Assembly (NCBI GenBank): GCA_020425085.1
Contig: JAGQRW010000004.1
Coordinates: forward strand, 1 to 64,000
From: Paracoccaceae bacterium
GTDB lineage: Bacteria; Pseudomonadota; Alphaproteobacteria; Rhodobacterales; Rhodobacteraceae
Length of the DNA: 64,000 nucleotides
Direction: 5' to 3'
Shown here piece after piece: positions 4,974 to 62,218 of the stretch. The position numbers and the translations under genes were made by a program. A model generated the notes under the pieces. The model was not told the origin of the DNA. It ran no database searches and saw only the letters and a list, made by a program, of their open reading frames with translations. Each line of letters begins with the position of its first letter. The stretch's first letter is position 1.

Positions 4974-5050
4974 TGGCGCGGTTGACGGGGCTCGAACCCG
5001 CGACCTCCGGCGTGACAGGCCGGCACTCTAACCAGCTGAGCTACAACCGC
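4974..5050 (-). tRNA. tRNA-Asp (anticodon GTC), copy 1
   Basis: A 77-nt cloverleaf on the minus strand with 7-bp acceptor stem GCGGTTG/CAACCGC, D-arm TAGCTCAGCTGGTTAGAG, anticodon loop containing CTGTCAC (GTC), T-arm with GTTCGAACC, and encoded CCA at 4974-4976. It differs from copy 2 by one base in the D-arm. Confidence 0.97.
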
Positions 5051-5069
5051 AATTCCATTACCGTTTCAG

Positions 5070-5146
5070 TGGCGCGGTTGACGGGGCTCGAACCCGCGAC
5101 CTCCGGCGTGACAGGCCGGCACTCTAACCGGCTGAGCTACAACCGC
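5070..5146 (-). tRNA. tRNA-Asp (anticodon GTC), copy 2
   Basis: A second 77-nt tRNA-Asp, 19 nt upstream of copy 1 in the transcription direction. It has the same acceptor, anticodon and T-arm, with CAGCCGG in the D-arm in place of CAGCTGG. CCA is encoded at 5070-5072. The two were probably made by tandem duplication and are processed from one transcript. Confidence 0.97.
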
Positions 5147-5291
5147 CTACTGAACCGCCAGCACCGTATCCGGACTGGCGTGAGGGGGGTTTTAGGCGGG
5201 CGCATTCGGGCCGTCAAGCAGATTGCGCCAATCGGATCGGGGTTTTTGCCGGCACACTGCTGGCGTTTGATCAAACCCGAGACTGGTGGGA

Positions 5292-5367
<76 letters not shown>

Positions 5368-52428: not shown

Positions 52429-52842
52429 TCATTTGTATTTCAGCAATTTGCCGATCTGGCTGTTTTTGGTCATTTCCGCCTGCCCAAGCGTGCAATAAGT
52501 CTCGGGCTGGTCGCGGTCCACACCATTTTTTTCAAGATACGCATATGTCGCTGCTCTCAGGCGATCCTGTTCCGATTTTGTCTTGCGATAGGCGTCGATT
52601 TCGGCGCGGCTGAAGCCCTGACTTGAGGCATAACTGACGATGCCCAGAACATAAAGGGTGGCCGCGATACGACGCGCCTCGATCGTGGGGCATTTGTCGC
52701 GAATCTCATGGCCGATGGCGGCCGTCAGCAGGCGGTTGAAAATCTCGGCGTTGTCCTTGATTTCCGGTTTGGCGATGGCGCTGGCCGAAAGGCTGCTGGC
52801 CAGCAAGGTGGCGGTGGTGAATCGGGTCAGGTTTTTCAACAT
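52429..52842 (-). CDS. DUF5333-type protein between nuoF and nuoG
   Basis: A 137-residue protein with a signal peptide (residues 1-24, ending SASAIA-K). The mature part is helical, with cysteines in RDKCPTIEARRIAA and ETYCTLG. It matches my memory of DUF5333, a Rhodobacteraceae family found in nuo operons; this is moderate evidence. AAAGGAG lies 8 nt before the ATG. Its role is unknown. Confidence 0.75.
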   Translation of the reverse strand: MLKNLTRFTTATLLASSLSASAIAKPEIKDNAEIFNRLLTAAIGHEIRDKCPTIEARRIAATLYVLGIVSYASSQGFSRAEIDAYRKTKSEQDRLRAATYAYLEKNGVDRDQPETYCTLGQAEMTKNSQIGKLLKYK

Positions 52843-52960
52843 GGATTGGCTCCTTTCAATGGAAAGGAGAGGCAGACGGCATCCGATATGCAATAACAGC
52901 ATCCGACCGGACCCGAGGCCGACCGTTTCGTTACCGCAAATGCCCTCGGTGCCATCATGC

Positions 52961-54256
52961 CTATTCAGCCGCCACCGCAGATACCCCGCCCTTGCGCTTG
53001 GCCTTGATCCGATCTTCGATCTCATCGCGGAAATGCCGGATCAGCCCCTGCACCGGCCAGGCCGCCGCATCGCCAAGGGCGCAGATGGTGTGGCCTTCGA
53101 CCTGCTTGGTCACATCCAAGAGCGTGTCGATTTCCTCGACCTCGGCCTCACCGCGGATCAGCCGTTCCATCACCCGCATCATCCAGCCGGTGCCTTCGCG
53201 GCAGGGGGTACACTGACCGCAGCTTTCGTGCTTGTAGAATTTCGACAGCCGCCAGATCGCCTTGATCACGTCGGTGGACTGATCCATCACGATCACCGCC
53301 GCCGTTCCCAGCCCGGATTTCTGGTCGCGCAGCCAGTCGAAATCCATGATCGCCTCACGCGCGATCGACGCGGGCAGCAGTGGTACCGAGGCACCGCCCG
53401 GGATCACCGCCTTGAGGTTGTCCCAGCCGCCACGAATACCGCCACAATGTTTCTCGATCAGTTCCTGAAACGGGATCGACATCGCCTCTTCGACCACGCA
53501 GGGATTGTTCACATGGCCGGAGATGGCAAACAGCTTGGTGCCGGCGTTGTTGGGGCGGCCGAATGAGGTGAACCAGTCCGGCCCGCGTCTGAGGATGGTC
53601 GGCGCAACCGCGATCGACTCGACATTGTTGACCGTGGTCGGGCAACCATAAAGCCCCGCACCCGCCGGAAACGGCGGCTTCATCCGGGGCAGGCCTTTCT
53701 TGCCCTCGATGCTTTCCAGCAGCGCGGTTTCCTCGCCGCAGATATAGGCACCCGCCCCATGCGCAAGGTAAAGGTCGAAATCCCAGCCGGATTTGGCGGC
53801 GTTTGCCCCCAGCAATCCGGCGTCATAAGCCTCATCAATCGCTGCTTGCAGCGCCTCGCGCTCGCGGATGAATTCGCCGCGGATATAAATGTATCCGGTA
53901 TGCGCACCCATGGCGAAACCGGCGATCAGGCAACCTTCGATCAGGGTGTGCGGATCATGGCGCATGATCTCGCGGTCCTTGCAGGTGCCGGGTTCGGATT
54001 CATCGGCGTTGACCACCAGATAGCTGGGACGGCCATCGCTTTCCTTGGGCATGAAGGACCATTTCAGGCCGGTCGGAAACCCTGCCCCGCCACGGCCACG
54101 CAGGCCCGAGGCCTTCATCTGATCGACCACCCAGTCGCGTCCGTTCTTGATGATTTTTCCGGTTCCGTCCCAATGTCCACGCGCACGCGCACCCTTCAGG
54201 CTGCGGTCATGCATGCCGTAAAGATTGGTAAAGATCCGATCCTGATCCTTTAGCAT
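52961..54256 (-). CDS. nuoF: NADH-quinone oxidoreductase subunit F
   Basis: A 431-residue subunit that binds NADH and FMN and holds cluster N3. The motifs [32 protein letters not shown] (FMN) and the cluster ligands [13 protein letters not shown] are visible, with the fourth Cys in [13 protein letters not shown]. It lies 3 bp after the DUF5337-type gene. Confidence 0.97.
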
Positions 54257-54259
54257 TCG

Positions 54260-54475
54260 TCATTCCTCATTCTTCCGGCGCCTTTGCCAGACCTGAAACA
54301 AAACCACCATCGCCCAGAAAAAGGCGGCAAGCGCCGCCAGATCGGCCAGAATCGCATAGCTTGCGTCCCAACCCATCCTGCCCCCGAGCCAGGAGACCCC
54401 CATCCAGGCCGGAAAGGTCACGATGATCACGATGGCAGCGATCCGTGACTGTCTTTCCGGCGGTTCTGTTGGCAA
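54260..54475 (-). CDS. DUF5337-type small membrane protein before nuoF
   Basis: A 71-residue protein with two membrane segments (residues about 12-30 and 41-61) and a charged tail (QRRRKNEE). Proteins of this kind, labelled DUF5337, occur in Rhodobacteraceae nuo clusters as I recall. The start is TTG 54475 with GGAG 7 nt upstream; no in-frame ATG is nearby. It is probably an accessory membrane protein of complex I; function unknown. Confidence 0.7.
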   Translation of the reverse strand: MPTEPPERQSRIAAIVIIVTFPAWMGVSWLGGRMGWDASYAILADLAALAAFFWAMVVLFQVWQRRRKNEE

Positions 54476-54506: not shown

Positions 54507-55169
54507 CTAATAGACGCTGCCTTTGTCCACTTTCCTTGAAAATTCCGTCTCGCCACCCTCGGCCAGGGTCTTGGCCTGCCCGGACCAGTCATCGCGGCTT
54601 GCCCGGCCTTTGAAGCGGATGAGGTTATCATCGACCCAGGCGATTTCGGCGCTGGTCCAGGCCGCGATCTGGTCGAAATGAAAAATTCCCATGCCGTGAA
54701 GTTGCTTTTCCAGCCCCGGGCCGATCCCCTTGATGCGTTTCAGATCATCCGGCTTGCCGTCCCGCGCTGCCTTGAGCTTTGGCGGGCTGCCGTCCGTGGC
54801 AGCGGTTGCCTTGGTTTCAGCCGGTTTTGCTTCTGGCGCGGCTTTCGATTCAGGTTTGGCAGCCTTTACCGGTTCTGGCACCGCCTTGCGGTCGTCGGCG
54901 GCGGTGGGTTGCCGCTTGGGCACCGGCGCGGCACTGGCTGCCGATTCAGCGCGGGCCAGATTGCCTGCGGTTTCGACACGTCCGCTTACGCAGAACAGCC
55001 GGATCAGCAACCAACCTGCGACAAAGAACACGATGAGGCCGAAAATCAGCGCCAGAATCATGCCCCATTCAAACGACTTCCAGGCGAACAGAAAGGCAAG
55101 TATTCCCAGCAACACCCCGGCCAGCCAGCTAAGCGTGCGGCAGGTGCTTCCGGTTTCAGGGTTGCTCAT
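54507..55169 (-). CDS. Membrane-anchored HhH-domain protein of the nuo operon (short form)
   Basis: A 220-residue protein. Residues 13-30 and 36-58 are membrane segments; about 70-140 is a Lys/Ala/Pro-rich linker; 141-220 is a helix-hairpin-helix domain starting [20 protein letters not shown]. Over these 80 residues about 57 are identical to the NuoE C-terminus, including the shared ending [10 protein letters not shown]. HhH domains of this type are often labelled flap-endonuclease-1-like, but no nuclease residues are seen. GAAGGAGG precedes the ATG. It follows the long-form paralogue. It may dock NuoE or complex I at the membrane; that is inference. Confidence 0.85.
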   Translation of the reverse strand: MSNPETGSTCRTLSWLAGVLLGILAFLFAWKSFEWGMILALIFGLIVFFVAGWLLIRLFCVSGRVETAGNLARAESAASAAPVPKRQPTAADDRKAVPEPVKAAKPESKAAPEAKPAETKATAATDGSPPKLKAARDGKPDDLKRIKGIGPGLEKQLHGMGIFHFDQIAAWTSAEIAWVDDNLIRFKGRASRDDWSGQAKTLAEGGETEFSRKVDKGSVY

Positions 55170-55221
55170 CGCTTCCTCCTTCAGTCGGTTTCGGTTGATA
55201 TTGCAGGTTCAAGTCAATGTC

Positions 55222-56736
55222 CTATCCGGAATTGCGGCTGATCTGGATCGCCTGCTTGCGCCACGCCTCGGCACCGGGTTGGCCATCCTCGATCTGCATG
55301 TTGGCGTCAAGCCAGGCCAGTTCGCGTCGGTTCATGCTGGTAAACTGCGCAAAATGATAGATTCCGGCACGGTTTAGGGCGGTCTGCTGTATCGCGCCGA
55401 TACCGTCGATCTGGGTCAGATCATCGGCCATGCCGTCGATCGGCTGGTCCAGGCCGTTCGGCTCCATCGGAACGATGGCCCGTCTTTGCGGGGTTTCATC
55501 CGGTTGCGTCCCTGTCGGCGGGGCGGTTTCGGTTTCGGCTATGGCCGGTTCATCCATAGCGGCATCGGCGAATTCTGCGGGTTCTTCGGCCCCTGTTGCC
55601 GGTGTGGCGTCAGCCTCATGCGGCTCGGCAGAATAGCCCTCCGGTTCCTCCGGTTCTGGTTCGGCATTGGTTTCAACGTTGGTTTCGCTGCCAGCATCCT
55701 GACCGGTGTCGCCATGCACTGAATCGACCGCCTGTTGCGCCTCGGCTTCGGCCCTGGCGGTCAGGGTGACAAGCTTTTGATGGAACGCCTCATCGGTGTC
55801 GATCGCGGTGGTATAGACGCGGCTGGCATCGGGCACCGCCACCTTTTCGGCGCGGGCATATGCGGCAAGGTCTTCGGCCTCGGCCGCCTCGACCTCGCTG
55901 GCGATTGCCTTGATCCTGTCGGCAACCGCCTTGGCCTTGGCAGCGGCATCCTGCGCCGGGGCGGCAGCTTCCACGGCGTTTTCCAGGTTGGTTTCAAAAT
56001 CGGTTTCCACATCGATTTCCACGGCGGTTTCGCTGTCCGCCTCTGCTGCTGCGGCTTCGGTTTCGACGACCTCGGCACTGTCTTCAGCGGCTGGTTCCAA
56101 AACGGTTTCTTCGGCCATCGCTTGATCGGCTATAGCCGTTTCATCGGGTTGTGCTGATTCCAGCCCGTCGGAGGCGTCATCGACCGGCCCGCTGTCAGCC
56201 TGTTCCCCATTGGCCGCGCGCTTGATCGAGGCGACGACGCGTTCCACCTCGATATCGCCATCACCTTCATCAGTTGGCTTTGTCTCGGATGCGGTCGGTG
56301 TCTTTGCCGGTTTCTCAGGCTTCACCGGCTGTACTGCAACGGCGGTTTCATCTTCTGCCGGATCATCCATGTCCAAATCGGCCACGGCAGCGATGCCTGC
56401 GACACCTGCCTTGGCGGCTGCGGTGATATCCGGGCGTTCGGTGGTTTCCTTGTCGACCTTCAGTTCGTTATAGCGTTTCGGGCGAATCTGGCTGGCGGCG
56501 TCGTCTTCTGCCGAAACAGCGTTGGCGTCGCCGGCCTTTGCCTTGCCGTCGCGACAGAGCAGACGGCTAAGCACCATACCGACCAGAACCATGCCGCCGA
56601 AACCGGCCAGAAGCGAGGTCAGGATTTCCTGTTGCAACTGGATCAAGAACTCGTAAATCAGCGCACCACCGGCGATGGCAGCGACCAGCCAGCAGATACT
56701 GCTGCATCTGCCGCCGCTTTTCTGCTGTTTTGCCAT
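55222..56736 (-). CDS. Long acidic membrane-anchored HhH-domain protein of the nuo operon
   Basis: A 504-residue protein. Two membrane segments lie at about 14-32 and 40-60 and a cytoplasmic Cys-Arg stretch follows. Residues about 70-430 are a very acidic Ala/Glu/Asp/Pro-rich, probably disordered region with repetitive VET/DFET patterns. Residues 438-504 are a diverged HhH domain (DDLTQIDGIGAIQQTALN, then LAWLDANMQ). It lacks the GGETEFSRK tail of the other two copies. The ATG at 56736 has GGGAG about 9 nt upstream. I know of no assigned function. Confidence 0.8.
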   Translation of the reverse strand: MAKQQKSGGRCSSICWLVAAIAGGALIYEFLIQLQQEILTSLLAGFGGMVLVGMVLSRLLCRDGKAKAGDANAVSAEDDAASQIRPKRYNELKVDKETTERPDITAAAKAGVAGIAAVADLDMDDPAEDETAVAVQPVKPEKPAKTPTASETKPTDEGDGDIEVERVVASIKRAANGEQADSGPVDDASDGLESAQPDETAIADQAMAEETVLEPAAEDSAEVVETEAAAAEADSETAVEIDVETDFETNLENAVEAAAPAQDAAAKAKAVADRIKAIASEVEAAEAEDLAAYARAEKVAVPDASRVYTTAIDTDEAFHQKLVTLTARAEAEAQQAVDSVHGDTGQDAGSETNVETNAEPEPEEPEGYSAEPHEADATPATGAEEPAEFADAAMDEPAIAETETAPPTGTQPDETPQRRAIVPMEPNGLDQPIDGMADDLTQIDGIGAIQQTALNRAGIYHFAQFTSMNRRELAWLDANMQIEDGQPGAEAWRKQAIQISRNSG

Positions 56737-56775
56737 TCCCACCTACTCCCTGTTCCTGCTTGCGGTTCCGGGCGC

Positions 56776-57900
56776 CTAGTAAACGCCACCCTTCTTCACT
56801 TTTCTGGAAAATTCGGTTTCGCCGCCTGATGCGAGGATTTTTGCCTGCGCCTGCCAGTCGTCACGGCTGACCCTGCCCCTGAAGCCGGTCAGGTTCTCAT
56901 CGACCCAGGCGATTTCTTCACTGCTCCAGCCGGCGATCTGGTCGAAATGCCAGACGCCGAGACTGTTCAGCAGGGTTTCCAGTTTCGGGCCGACACCCTT
57001 GATGCGTTTCAGATCATCCGCACCGGTATCACGCGCTGATTTCAGCATCGCCGGCTTGATGTCTTTCGGCTTGCCGCTGTCGGCCTGCCCAAAGGCCGAC
57101 TTGGCCACCGCCTCTTTGGTGGTTGCCGGCGCGTCTGACGCAGGTTTGGCCCTGGTGGCCGGTTTGGCTTTGGCTTCGGCGGGTTTTGGCACGGCTTTGG
57201 TGCGGGATTTCAGGATCGGCACCTCGTCACCCTGAATGCGCTTGATGGTGTCGCCAAACGCCACCGCCCGGTCGACCGAAGCATTATATCGCGCGCGCCC
57301 GCTTTCAAAATCGGTGAGGCTGGTCAGCCCGGAAAGCGGTTCGGCAGCATAGCGGCCATTTTGCGGGCCGGGCAACGGCACCTCGCCATTGGCCAGCGTT
57401 GCCATGATGGCGCGGAATTTGTCCGCCGTCAGATCTTCATAGAAATCCTTGCCGATCTGCACCATTGGCGCGTTGGTACAGGCGCCAAGGCATTCCACCT
57501 CTTCCCAACTGAACTTGCCATCGGCGGACAGTTCATGCGCATTCGGTGCGATCAGTTCGCGGCAGATCGAGATCAGGTCCTCGGCACCGCAGATCATGCA
57601 GGTTGTGGTGCCGCAGACCTGAATATGTGCCACCGAACCAACCGGTTGCAACTGGTACATGAAGTAGAAGGTGGCGACTTCCAGCACCCGGATATGCGCC
57701 ATGCCCAGCATGTCGCCGACTGCCTCGATTGCCGGTCTGGTCAGCCAGCCTTCCTGTTCCTGGGCGCGCCACAGAAGCGGGATCACCGCGCTGGCCTGAC
57801 GACCCTCGGGATATTTGGCGATCTGGGCTTCGGCCCATTTCAGGTTGGCTGCAGTAAAGGCAAAGCTGTCGGGTTGGGTATGGTGTAGACGGCGAAGCAT
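56776..57900 (-). CDS. nuoE: NADH-quinone oxidoreductase subunit E with C-terminal HhH extension
   Basis: A 374-residue protein. Residues about 15-170 are a thioredoxin-like [2Fe-2S] domain with Cys96 and Cys101 (CGTTTC) and Cys137 and Cys141 (CLGAC), holding cluster N1a. After residue 180 come a linker (190-290, Lys/Ala/Pro-rich) and an HhH domain (295-374). The extension of about 200 residues is absent from E. coli NuoE (166 residues). The same domain recurs in the next two genes downstream. The ATG at 57900 was chosen; the longer frame upstream is antisense-like and overlaps nuoD. Confidence 0.95.
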
Positions 57901-61033: not shown

Positions 61034-62218
61034 TCAGGCGCGGCGGCGGGTCAGGATCGGGTAGTAGATCAGGGTAAAGCCGCCAAATCCGAGGATCCAG
61101 AAGGTACCGGCAAGATCCAGCAACCATCGGGTACTGGGCAGAAATTCCGCCGTCATGCGCGCCAGCGCCGCCAGAATCACCAGCAGATAGACCGCCGTGA
61201 TCCCCCTGGTCGCAGTCAGCTTGCGGCCGGAATGGCCAAGGGCGGCGCGGGTCATCATCGCCAGCGTCATCACCGCCACCGCACCCGCCATCCAGGCATG
61301 CGGCACCAGCCCGGCAATCAGCGGGCTGTCCGGCACCCGGCCAAGCGCGATGGTTAAAAAGCCGAGCGGGATGAACAGATACCCGACATGCATGATCGTC
61401 ACCAGGGGTTCCGCAAACGTGCGCCAGCCGACCCAACGCCACAGCCTTGTCAGCTGCAATGCCCCGACAAGAGCGGCCAGAACCGCCGCCAGCACGCTTT
61501 CCGGGGCGGCGACCCAGACCAGAATGCCGACCGCAGTAGCCGCCAGCACCTGCATGTCGAAACGGTTCATCGGCACCGGCAGGCGTCCGCCTCCCCGCTG
61601 CGCCAGCCAGTTGCGGGTAAAGCTGGGCACCACCCGCCCGCCAATCAGCACGATCAGGAACACTACAGCACCTGCCCCCAGTCTGAGGCCAAGGCCGCCG
61701 TCATCAATGCCGTAGACCGCATCAAGCGTAAACAGAAGATCGGCAATGAACAGAACCGCCAGGATCGCCAGTACCGGCATGTTGCGCCAGTTCCGCGCGA
61801 GGATGATCTCGCGCCCCAGAAGACCGGTCAGCGCCACCAGAAAGCCAAGGTCGATTACCGGTGCGACGATCTCGGGCAGGTAATCCGAGATCAGGATCGC
61901 CAGCCGACCCAGCAGCCACAGCCCCGACAGCATCGCCGTTGGCCAGCCAACCACCGGCAGCCGCCCGGTCCAGTTCGGTACCGCCGTCAACAGGAAACCG
62001 GCAATCACCGCCGTGGTATAGCCAAACAGCATTTCATGCTGGTGCCAGTAGCCCCCGACATAGCGGCTGGGAAGTTCCAGACCTGCCGCCAGTGTTCCGA
62101 CCCAAAGCACCATCGCCAGCGTCGCCCAGATACCTGCGCCCAGGAAAAAGGCGCGAAACCCGTGGCTGAAGACCAGTGGCCCCTTGTAGGCGCGGCGCAG
62201 TTCGGATGTGGTTGCCAT
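61034..62218 (-). CDS. nnrS: NnrS family membrane protein
   Basis: A 394-residue haem- and copper-containing membrane protein family linked to nitric oxide tolerance, with about 12 membrane segments. The family pattern FSHGFRAFFLGAGIWA, GGYWHQHEMLFGYTTAVIAGF, a GGRVVPSFTRNW segment and HAWMAGAVAVMT are visible. AGAGGT lies 6 nt before the ATG. No nitric oxide reductase or nitrite reductase genes are adjacent, so it may be a stand-alone nitrosative-stress gene. It lies upstream of nuoA on the same strand. Confidence 0.92.
   Translation of the reverse strand: MATTSELRRAYKGPLVFSHGFRAFFLGAGIWATLAMVLWVGTLAAGLELPSRYVGGYWHQHEMLFGYTTAVIAGFLLTAVPNWTGRLPVVGWPTAMLSGLWLLGRLAILISDYLPEIVAPVIDLGFLVALTGLLGREIILARNWRNMPVLAILAVLFIADLLFTLDAVYGIDDGGLGLRLGAGAVVFLIVLIGGRVVPSFTRNWLAQRGGGRLPVPMNRFDMQVLAATAVGILVWVAAPESVLAAVLAALVGALQLTRLWRWVGWRTFAEPLVTIMHVGYLFIPLGFLTIALGRVPDSPLIAGLVPHAWMAGAVAVMTLAMMTRAALGHSGRKLTATRGITAVYLLVILAALARMTAEFLPSTRWLLDLAGTFWILGFGGFTLIYYPILTRRRA

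What the first reader, a model, noticed from the sequence alone, without database searches (positions are those of the whole stretch)
54507..57900. Three consecutive nuo-operon proteins share a C-terminal HhH domain, two of them membrane-anchored
NuoE carries a linker and an 80-residue helix-hairpin-helix domain. The gene at 54507 ends in a paralogous domain (about 57 of 80 residues identical by eye, ending [10 protein letters not shown] in both), and the gene at 55222 ends in a diverged copy. Both non-Nuo proteins begin with two membrane segments. This looks like a lineage-specific module that could tether, cluster or regulate complex I, with the HhH domains perhaps binding each other or DNA/RNA. 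I know of no described function.
Basis: partly seen in the sequence, partly recalled or inferred. Interest (0 to 1): 0.78.

Follow-up and report, generated by a model that had tools for sequence, protein, structure and literature searches.

The report
Complex I-operon cousin of photosynthesis protein-O
A bacterium without photosynthesis genes carries, inside its respiratory complex I gene cluster, relatives of a protein recently seen as a new part of photosynthetic reaction centres, which hints that this protein family serves respiration too and perhaps did so first.

Summary
NuoE, a 504-aa protein (Long) and a 220-aa protein (Short) are consecutive and share a C-terminal HhH-like domain (NuoE/Short 60 of 86 identical; Long diverged, 24 of 63).

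Short is not undescribed. Over nearly its full length it is homologous (E 1.7e-44) to protein-O, the two-helix subunit between RC and LH1 in Dinoroseobacter shibae (PMC12079452), whose gene there also lies between nuoE and nuoF and whose function is unknown. A relative is in a Rhodovulum sulfidophilum LH1-RC entry. Yet the window's genome and its genus (0 of 10) lack reaction-centre genes.

In a one-per-genus sample of the family, 87 of 137 genera carry a hairpin+HhH gene between nuoE and nuoF: 46 of 83 without and 41 of 54 with reaction-centre genes. NuoE and Short-type domains form one sequence pool. Hairpin residues track phototrophy.

Best reading: a membrane-anchored adaptor of complex I, refitted to dock on RC-LH1 in phototrophs. 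Homology is near certain; the adaptor mechanism is inferred.

The parts
56776..57900 (-). nuoE, 374 aa: thioredoxin-like [2Fe-2S] part (about residues 1-230), linker, C-terminal HhH domain
   Evidence: PF01257 6e-51; NCBIfam PRK12373 560 bits over cut-off 514
56779..57036 (-). HhH domain plus tail [16 protein letters not shown] of NuoE (residues 289-374)
   Evidence: predicted helices, mean pLDDT 85.5
55222..56736 (-). Long: hairpin + about 350-residue linker + diverged HhH; lineage-specific paralogue of the protein-O type
   Evidence: present in 7 of 8 fetched congeners
56539..56721 (-). two-helix membrane hairpin of Long with Cys11/Cys15 and Cys61
   Evidence: sequence as printed; phmmer to protein-O type hairpins, best E 7e-7
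55225..55461 (-). diverged HhH domain of Long (no GFKGR part, no TEFS tail)
54507..55169 (-). Short: protein-O homologue, 220 aa, hairpin + linker + HhH + tail
   Evidence: phmmer to 8yy9_O E 1.7e-44 (7-220 vs 7-239) and 9wqv_a E 5.9e-30; model
54978..55160 (-). two-helix membrane hairpin of Short with Cys10 and Cys60 (positions of the D. shibae Cys10-Cys59 disulfide)
   Evidence: sequence as printed; hairpin overlays 8yy9_O at 1.3 A over 47 columns, TM 0.79 by target length
54510..54767 (-). HhH domain plus tail [16 protein letters not shown] of Short (residues 135-220)
54260..54475 (-). small DUF5337 protein, 71 aa read from a TTG, between Short and nuoF (neighbour, not part of the module)
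   Evidence: PF17272 3.6e-26
52961..54256 (-). nuoF, downstream border of the slot

Best explanation
Short is a protein-O homologue in an organism without a photosynthetic reaction centre, and Long is a lineage-specific paralogue of it. SHOWN: homology of hairpin and domain, operon position, conservation in non-phototrophs, one shared pool of HhH domains between NuoE and Short-type proteins. INFERRED: the protein is a membrane-anchored adaptor of complex I. The hairpin sits in the membrane, a flexible linker lets the HhH domain reach the peripheral arm, and this HhH and the one hung on NuoE (also on a linker) bind each other or one common partner, so that complex I is held near another membrane complex. 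In phototrophs the hairpin has been refitted to fill the RC-LH1 gap; in non-phototrophs it binds some other membrane partner, not identified. Recruitment to photosynthesis is thus read as secondary.
For: Near full-length homology to RC-LH1 chain O and the Rhodovulum chain, with the disulfide cysteines kept. No PF00124 in the own genome or genus (0 of 10, own included; 0 of 8 of those at least 90% complete); no LHC PF00556 in the own genome. 46 of 83 non-phototrophic genera keep the gene in the nuo slot. NuoE and Short-type domains are as alike across genomes (66.5%) as NuoE domains are to each other (67.4%) or Short-type to each other (67.1%), and more alike within a genome (70.5%; permutation z 8.4, not corrected for relatedness); the nearest neighbour of a Short-type domain is a NuoE domain in 35 of 88. 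A TEFS-like tail is shared by NuoE and Short-type proteins (both in 37 of 77). In the RC-free genus the Short HhH has pN 0.13-0.24 against pS 0.59-0.73 (3 pairs; pS near saturation). Hairpin residues follow phototrophy: F at column 61 33/41 vs 14/46, Q at 58 13/41 vs 0/46, K/R at 18 1/41 vs 18/46; tree-simulated maximum-statistic p 0.014, 0.048, 0.048. Nearest fold of the domain is the NusA AR2 domain in complex with the protein SuhB (E 0.26).
Against: No interaction of complex I with protein-O has been shown in anything I read; in D. shibae the protein was found in RC-LH1. 34 of 137 genera have the NuoE domain without a hairpin gene in the slot, 11 the reverse and 16 neither, so the two are not obligate partners. 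The NuoE/Short co-occurrence and the link of gene presence to phototrophy are not significant in independent pairs (median p 1 and 0.625), although tree simulation gives p 0.029 for the latter. The domain matches ribosomal-protein and phasin family models, so the ligand may have nothing to do with complex I. Partial correlation of NuoE and Short-type domain divergence beyond the species signal is weak (0.14; permutation sd 0.07, max 0.26).
Confidence: 0.45

Rival explanations
1. Protein-O was a photosynthesis protein first; non-phototrophs carry relics left after loss of reaction centres, still transcribed because they sit in the nuo operon.
For: Gene presence is somewhat commoner with reaction-centre genes (41 of 54 vs 46 of 83, Fisher p 0.018; tree simulation p 0.029). 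Phototrophy changes at least 34 times on the tree, so gains or losses are many.
Against: Kept in over half of the sampled non-phototrophic genera; pN below pS in an RC-free genus; non-phototrophs keep the Cys pair more often (36/46 vs 21/41) and have their own residue signature (K/R at 16-18 in 32/46 vs 4/41; composite chosen after seeing the data), which a decaying relic should not show; the genus duplicated and kept Long.
Confidence: 0.17
2. The HhH domain is a nucleic-acid binding or nucleoid/ribosome-tethering tag that happens to be fused to several abundant proteins, NuoE and protein-O among them.
For: Matches to the L21, S2 and PhaH family models; profile matches to archaeal eL32 (E 5e-4) and, weakly, topoisomerase V, RadA and DNA polymerase IV.
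Against: Mean net charge -1.7 (NuoE type) and -1.0 (Short type); nearest fold is the NusA AR2 domain solved with a protein partner (E 0.26 only); within-genome likeness of NuoE and Short-type domains.
Confidence: 0.2
3. Assembly or stability factors: hairpin proteins act as chaperones for large membrane complexes (RC-LH1 in phototrophs, complex I membrane arm otherwise), and the HhH only raises local concentration.
For: The authors of the D. shibae structure compare protein-O with protein-U and speculate on a role in RC-LH1 assembly (PMC12079452, section 2.3); position inside the nuo operon.
Against: Does not by itself explain why NuoE carries the same domain and tail.
Confidence: 0.18

Closest known systems
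Protein-O of the Dinoroseobacter shibae RC-LH1 complex (same sequence in 8YY9, 8YZ2, 9JPB, 9KM0; PMC12079452)
   Same: Two-helix N-terminal hairpin with a cysteine near each end, linker, C-terminal HhH with GGETEFS tail; gene between nuoE and nuoF; HhH shared with NuoE.
   Different: The window's organism has no reaction-centre or LH match, so Short cannot be an RC-LH1 subunit there; the window has a second, diverged paralogue (Long); Short's hairpin has Arg right after the first Cys and neither Gln nor Phe at the two positions after the turn that go with phototrophy.
Chain a of Rhodovulum sulfidophilum LH1-RC (9WQV), deposited as NADH:ubiquinone oxidoreductase 41 kd complex I subunit
   Same: Homologous over hairpin and domain (E 5.9e-30, residues 14-206).
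   Different: From a phototroph; I saw only the entry's title and sequence match, no paper.
NuoE PRK12373 (long alphaproteobacterial NuoE)
   Same: Same HhH at the C-terminus; the window's NuoE is a member.
   Different: Soluble complex I subunit; no hairpin.
Family models of L21 (PRK12278), S2 (PRK12311) and phasin PhaH (NF045508) whose C-terminal parts match the domain
   Same: Same domain family; one L21-like protein of the own genome carries it.
   Different: Other host proteins, no such hairpin expected; of the four rows that I took for L21-like (L061, L069, L076, L085; not tested) none has the GGETEFS tail.
NusA AR2 domain (6IB8)
   Same: First hit of the fold search with the predicted HhH domain.
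   Different: E 0.26 only; a resemblance of fold, no claim of membership.

Membership tests
protein-O family (sequence family) | N-terminal two-helix transmembrane hairpin homologous to 8YY9 chain O | tested here: met
   Short; Long, to other family hairpins
protein-O family (sequence family) | Cysteine at each end of the hairpin (Cys10 and Cys59 in D. shibae) | tested here: met
   Short Cys10/Cys60, Long Cys11/Cys61 (sequences printed); not universal in the family: 57 of 87
protein-O family (sequence family) | C-terminal HhH domain shared with NuoE | tested here: met
   Short 60/86; Long diverged 24/63
protein-O family (sequence family) | Gene between nuoE and nuoF | tested here: met
   87 of 137 sampled genera
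RC-LH1 subunit | Organism has a reaction centre and LH1 for it to bind | tested here: not met
   No PF00124 and no PF00556 (a short, noisy profile) in the own genome; genus 0 of 10 for PF00124
RC-LH1 subunit | Found in the purified complex | not testable with these tools
   needs biochemistry
NuoE PRK12373 | Score over curated cut-off | tested here: met
   560 vs 514 bits
Pfam HHH_5 (helix-hairpin-helix) | Score over Pfam gathering cut-off | tested here: not met
   about 14 vs 27 bits; 24 of 30 aligned relatives match at E up to 0.1, best 1.7e-5; hence 'HhH-like'
Complex I accessory subunit | Co-purifies with or affects complex I | not testable with these tools
   only operon position and shared domain support it

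The most novel reading that the evidence does not exclude
Protein-O and the NuoE HhH are two halves of a docking system that holds complex I next to RC-LH1 in phototrophic Rhodobacteraceae and next to another quinone-linked complex in their non-phototrophic kin: a photosynthetic-respiratory supercomplex of purple bacteria, with RC-LH1's new subunit being a borrowed complex I adaptor.
Probability: 0.22. Interest if true: 0.9.

Novelty: new variant of a known kind. Interest (0 to 1): 0.62.

Why it matters
The authors of the one structure paper that I found and read in part write that the function of protein-O is unknown and that it is unclear whether its gene was the organism's own, transferred or recruited (PMC12079452, section 2.3). 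The census gives a direct lead: the family sits in the nuo operon of phototrophs and non-phototrophs alike, including over half of the sampled genera without reaction-centre genes, and its hairpin carries residues that go with or without a reaction centre. Its basic function can therefore be sought in non-photosynthetic laboratory strains, and it makes a link between complex I and RC-LH1 in purple bacteria testable.

Tried and rejected
PufX and protein-O as mutually exclusive: rejected; a hairpin+HhH gene is in 24 of 32 phototrophic genera with PufX and 17 of 22 without (Fisher p 1.0). The cysteine pair is rarer with PufX (7 of 24 vs 14 of 17, p 0.0013, no tree control).

The disulfide as a phototroph feature: rejected; the pair is commoner in non-phototrophs (36/46 vs 21/41; 36/46 vs 20/41 by the cruder rule).

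Nucleic-acid binding as the leading idea: lowered by charge and fold, not excluded.

A mobile or phage origin: no phage record matches Short; seven plasmid records match only in the HhH part, below 60% identity.

RNA element in the region: none (one search finds only three tRNAs elsewhere). A promoter scan found none between 54200 and 58200, which says little for this group of bacteria.

Foldseek with the whole Short model gives no hit below E 0.001; RC-LH1 chains lead the list at E 0.05-0.31. The HhH model alone does not list 9WQV chain a among the 50 rows shown of 112, so the 110 residues held for that chain probably do not include the HhH (inference).

First census pass used too strict a hairpin rule (82 of 137); replaced by a hydrophobic-coverage rule (87 of 137). 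Dropped before counts: 6 of 149 genomes without NuoE at E 1e-30, G071, G147 and G151 (contig ends; not fetched), G077 and G193 (no NuoF in span); the window's own genome was kept out of these counts (it is included in the 77 and in the trees). For residue tests one hairpin per genome was used (87; second copies and the window left out). Residue columns come from one MAFFT alignment and 279 screened features; the K/R 16-18 composite was made after looking. The tree is a quick LG+G4 tree of NuoE core plus NuoF, so transfer of the nuo operon would mislead it.
Full report
CHECK. The nuo cluster runs on the minus strand from nuoA (60862) downwards (gene names other than nuoE from sequence, recalled). 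Between nuoE (57900-56776) and nuoF (54256-52961) lie Long (56736-55222, 504 aa), Short (55169-54507, 220 aa) and a 71-aa DUF5337 protein (54475-54260). Gaps nuoE-Long-Short are 39 and 52 bp. The HhH-like domains of NuoE and Short share 60 of 86 residues and both hold [10 protein letters not shown] in the tail; Long's copy shares 24 of 63 with either; all three scores lie far above 500 shuffles. Short and Long each start with a two-helix hydrophobic hairpin, and these hairpins are homologous to each other.

WHAT SHORT IS. phmmer against PDB sequences gives E 1.7e-44 to chain O of the D. shibae RC-LH1 complex over residues 7-220 vs 7-239, and E 5.9e-30 to chain a of the R. sulfidophilum LH1-RC (entry title). 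In PMC12079452 (abstract and outline, section 2.3 in full, the section on mass spectrometry and search passages) protein-O is a hairpin between RC and LH1 with a Cys10-Cys59 disulfide, a flexible unresolved C-terminal part, a gene between nuoE and nuoF, a C-terminus like that of NuoE, and unknown function. So the sharing of this domain with NuoE and the gene position were already in print for D. shibae. The AlphaFold2 model of Short (29 sequences, mean pLDDT 81.9) has a hairpin that overlays 8YY9 chain O at 1.3 A over 47 columns.

NO REACTION CENTRE. The own genome (3.34 Mb, 100% complete by the tool's figure) has no PF00124 and no PF00556; 0 of 10 genomes of the genus, own included, have PF00124. 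Thus Short cannot be an RC-LH1 subunit here.

CENSUS. 149 genomes, one per genus, were drawn evenly from the window's family. NuoE was found in 143. I fetched 139 regions; 137 hold nuoF as well. PF00124 is in 60 of 149, 54 of those 137. A hairpin+HhH gene lies in the slot in 87 of 137: 41 of 54 with and 46 of 83 without reaction-centre genes (Fisher p 0.018; tree simulation p 0.029; independent pairs not significant). NuoE carries the domain in 110 of 137; both are present in 76, NuoE domain alone 34, hairpin gene alone 11, neither 16 (Fisher p 0.008; independent pairs median p 1). Eleven of 137 have a second HhH gene in the slot, ten of them without a hairpin. One sampled genome (G084, L179) has a hairpin identical to the D. 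shibae chain as printed. In an earlier, biased set (best 80 of 235 related loci) 34 loci have a hairpin+HhH gene in the slot; 33 of them lay in searched genomes: 15 with, 18 without reaction-centre genes. Roseibium, Labrenzia and Stappia loci of that set have the NuoE domain but no such gene in the slot, whereas one Rhizobiaceae MAG (L064) has it. Across the class, 10 of 115 genomes match the protein-O profile at E 1e-6, two of them of the own family; in the other eight no match begins before profile position 25, so the hairpin is not fully covered.

ONE POOL OF DOMAINS. Over 77 genomes with both (window included), NuoE and Short-type domains are 66.5% identical between genomes, about as NuoE domains among themselves (67.4%) and Short-type among themselves (67.1%), and 70.5% within a genome (permutation z 8.4). 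That permutation ignores relatedness, so part of the excess may be shared ancestry. The own partner is the best match of a NuoE domain in 7 of 77. The nearest neighbour of a Short-type domain is a NuoE domain in 35 of 88 cases and the reverse in 31 of 113. Either the two exchange sequence or both are held to one ligand. A TEFS-like tail is in both proteins in 37 of 77, in one only in 29, in neither in 11 (for the window this script took Long, not Short, as the partner).

HAIRPIN AND PHOTOTROPHY. Among 87 hairpins (one per genome), Phe at alignment column 61 is in 33 of 41 phototrophs vs 14 of 46 others, Gln at 58 in 13 of 41 vs 0 of 46 and Lys/Arg at 18 in 1 of 41 vs 18 of 46. With phototrophy simulated on the NuoE-core/NuoF tree, maximum-statistic p over 279 features is 0.014, 0.048 and 0.048; a Pro after the hairpin reaches 0.065. 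Columns 58 and 61 lie just after the turn (Gln38 and Phe41 in D. shibae, counted); in D. shibae the periplasmic end of the hairpin touches subunit L, and the cytoplasmic end touches L and H loops. A fit to RC-LH1 in phototrophs would explain both signals. Neither Short nor Long has Gln at 58 or Phe at 61; Short has Arg at column 16, Long has no Lys/Arg at 16-18.

LONG. Its hairpin matches other family hairpins (best E 7e-7), its 350-residue middle matches nothing in the loci held then outside the own genome, and its HhH lacks the GFKGR part and the tail. Nine of ten genomes of the genus (own included) match the Long query at E 1e-5, at least one (G318) only in the HhH part. Of eight fetched relatives seven have Long: four with a Short relative and three without one (one of these, L241, has a 125-aa ORF with a weak Short match); one has neither. 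A MNRRELAW-like stretch is kept in the Long HhH of all seven. pN is below pS in all Long and Short segments measured, linkers included, though pS is near saturation. Long is a maintained genus-level paralogue with its own HhH type.

THE DOMAIN. Profile search finds, after the two RC chains, archaeal eL32 (E 5e-4) and then, among unrelated-looking hits, topoisomerase V, RadA, DNA polymerase IV and NusA at E 0.03-1.1; fold search puts the NusA AR2-SuhB entry first at E 0.26. It looks like an HhH domain of the adaptor/nucleic-acid superfamily; ligand unknown. The own genome has a fourth copy at the end of an L21-like protein and a fifth place at E 0.27 only (the L21 identity is from its sequence as recalled and the PRK12278 match of the domain).

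MECHANISM. Committed reading: membrane-anchored adaptor of complex I. The linkers (about 70 residues in Short, about 58 in NuoE) are long enough in principle to bridge membrane and tip of the peripheral arm (position of the 24-kDa subunit recalled, not measured). Steps shown: homology, position, conservation, residue association. Steps inferred: HhH-HhH or common-ligand binding, tethering, refit for RC-LH1. Probability of the tethering mechanism about 0.45; of a physical RC-LH1/complex I link in phototrophs about 0.22.

NOVELTY. The protein and its nuo position are published for D. shibae; what is added here is that most sampled carriers by a narrow margin (46 of 87) lack reaction-centre genes, the phototrophy-linked residues, the single domain pool and the Long paralogue. 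Paper searches: (listings only, save PMC12079452); no listing showed a treatment of this family in non-phototrophs, but most subscription journals are not held and the supplements of PMC12079452 were not seen.

Noticed in passing
54260-54475 (-): A 71-aa DUF5337 protein (read from a TTG) lies between Short and nuoF; a terminator-like hairpin (54338-54323) sits inside it, among 10 such matches where 5.1 are expected by chance. A gap of similar size (about 220-290 bp) precedes nuoF in many genera of the census that have no hairpin gene.
   Followed up: partly
52432-52848 (-): DUF5333 protein (PF17267) between nuoF and nuoG.
   Followed up: partly
L024:5434-6282 and L036:5641-6279: The same HhH with a TDFA.KV-like tail ends a membrane protein with one N-terminal hydrophobic segment next to an OmpA-like protein, with no nuo gene in the locus: another membrane context of the module.
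   Followed up: partly
L159, L067, L071, L114, L206, L218: Several protein-O relatives end in a different shared tail (..EAFLERAKTNDY-like) instead of TEFS..VY.
   Followed up: no
L102, L104, L137, L155 and the first gene of L160: Hairpin-only genes (83-160 aa) without a detected HhH in the nuoE-nuoF slot.
   Followed up: no
L081:5542-6735: Cohaesibacter protein with two HhH domains and an N-terminal hydrophobic segment; no nuo gene found in its locus.
   Followed up: no
4977-5367 (-): Three tRNA genes close together, two with the same Rfam score (70.2 bits).
   Followed up: no
61037-62218 (-): NnrS family membrane protein (PF05940) just upstream of nuoA.
   Followed up: no
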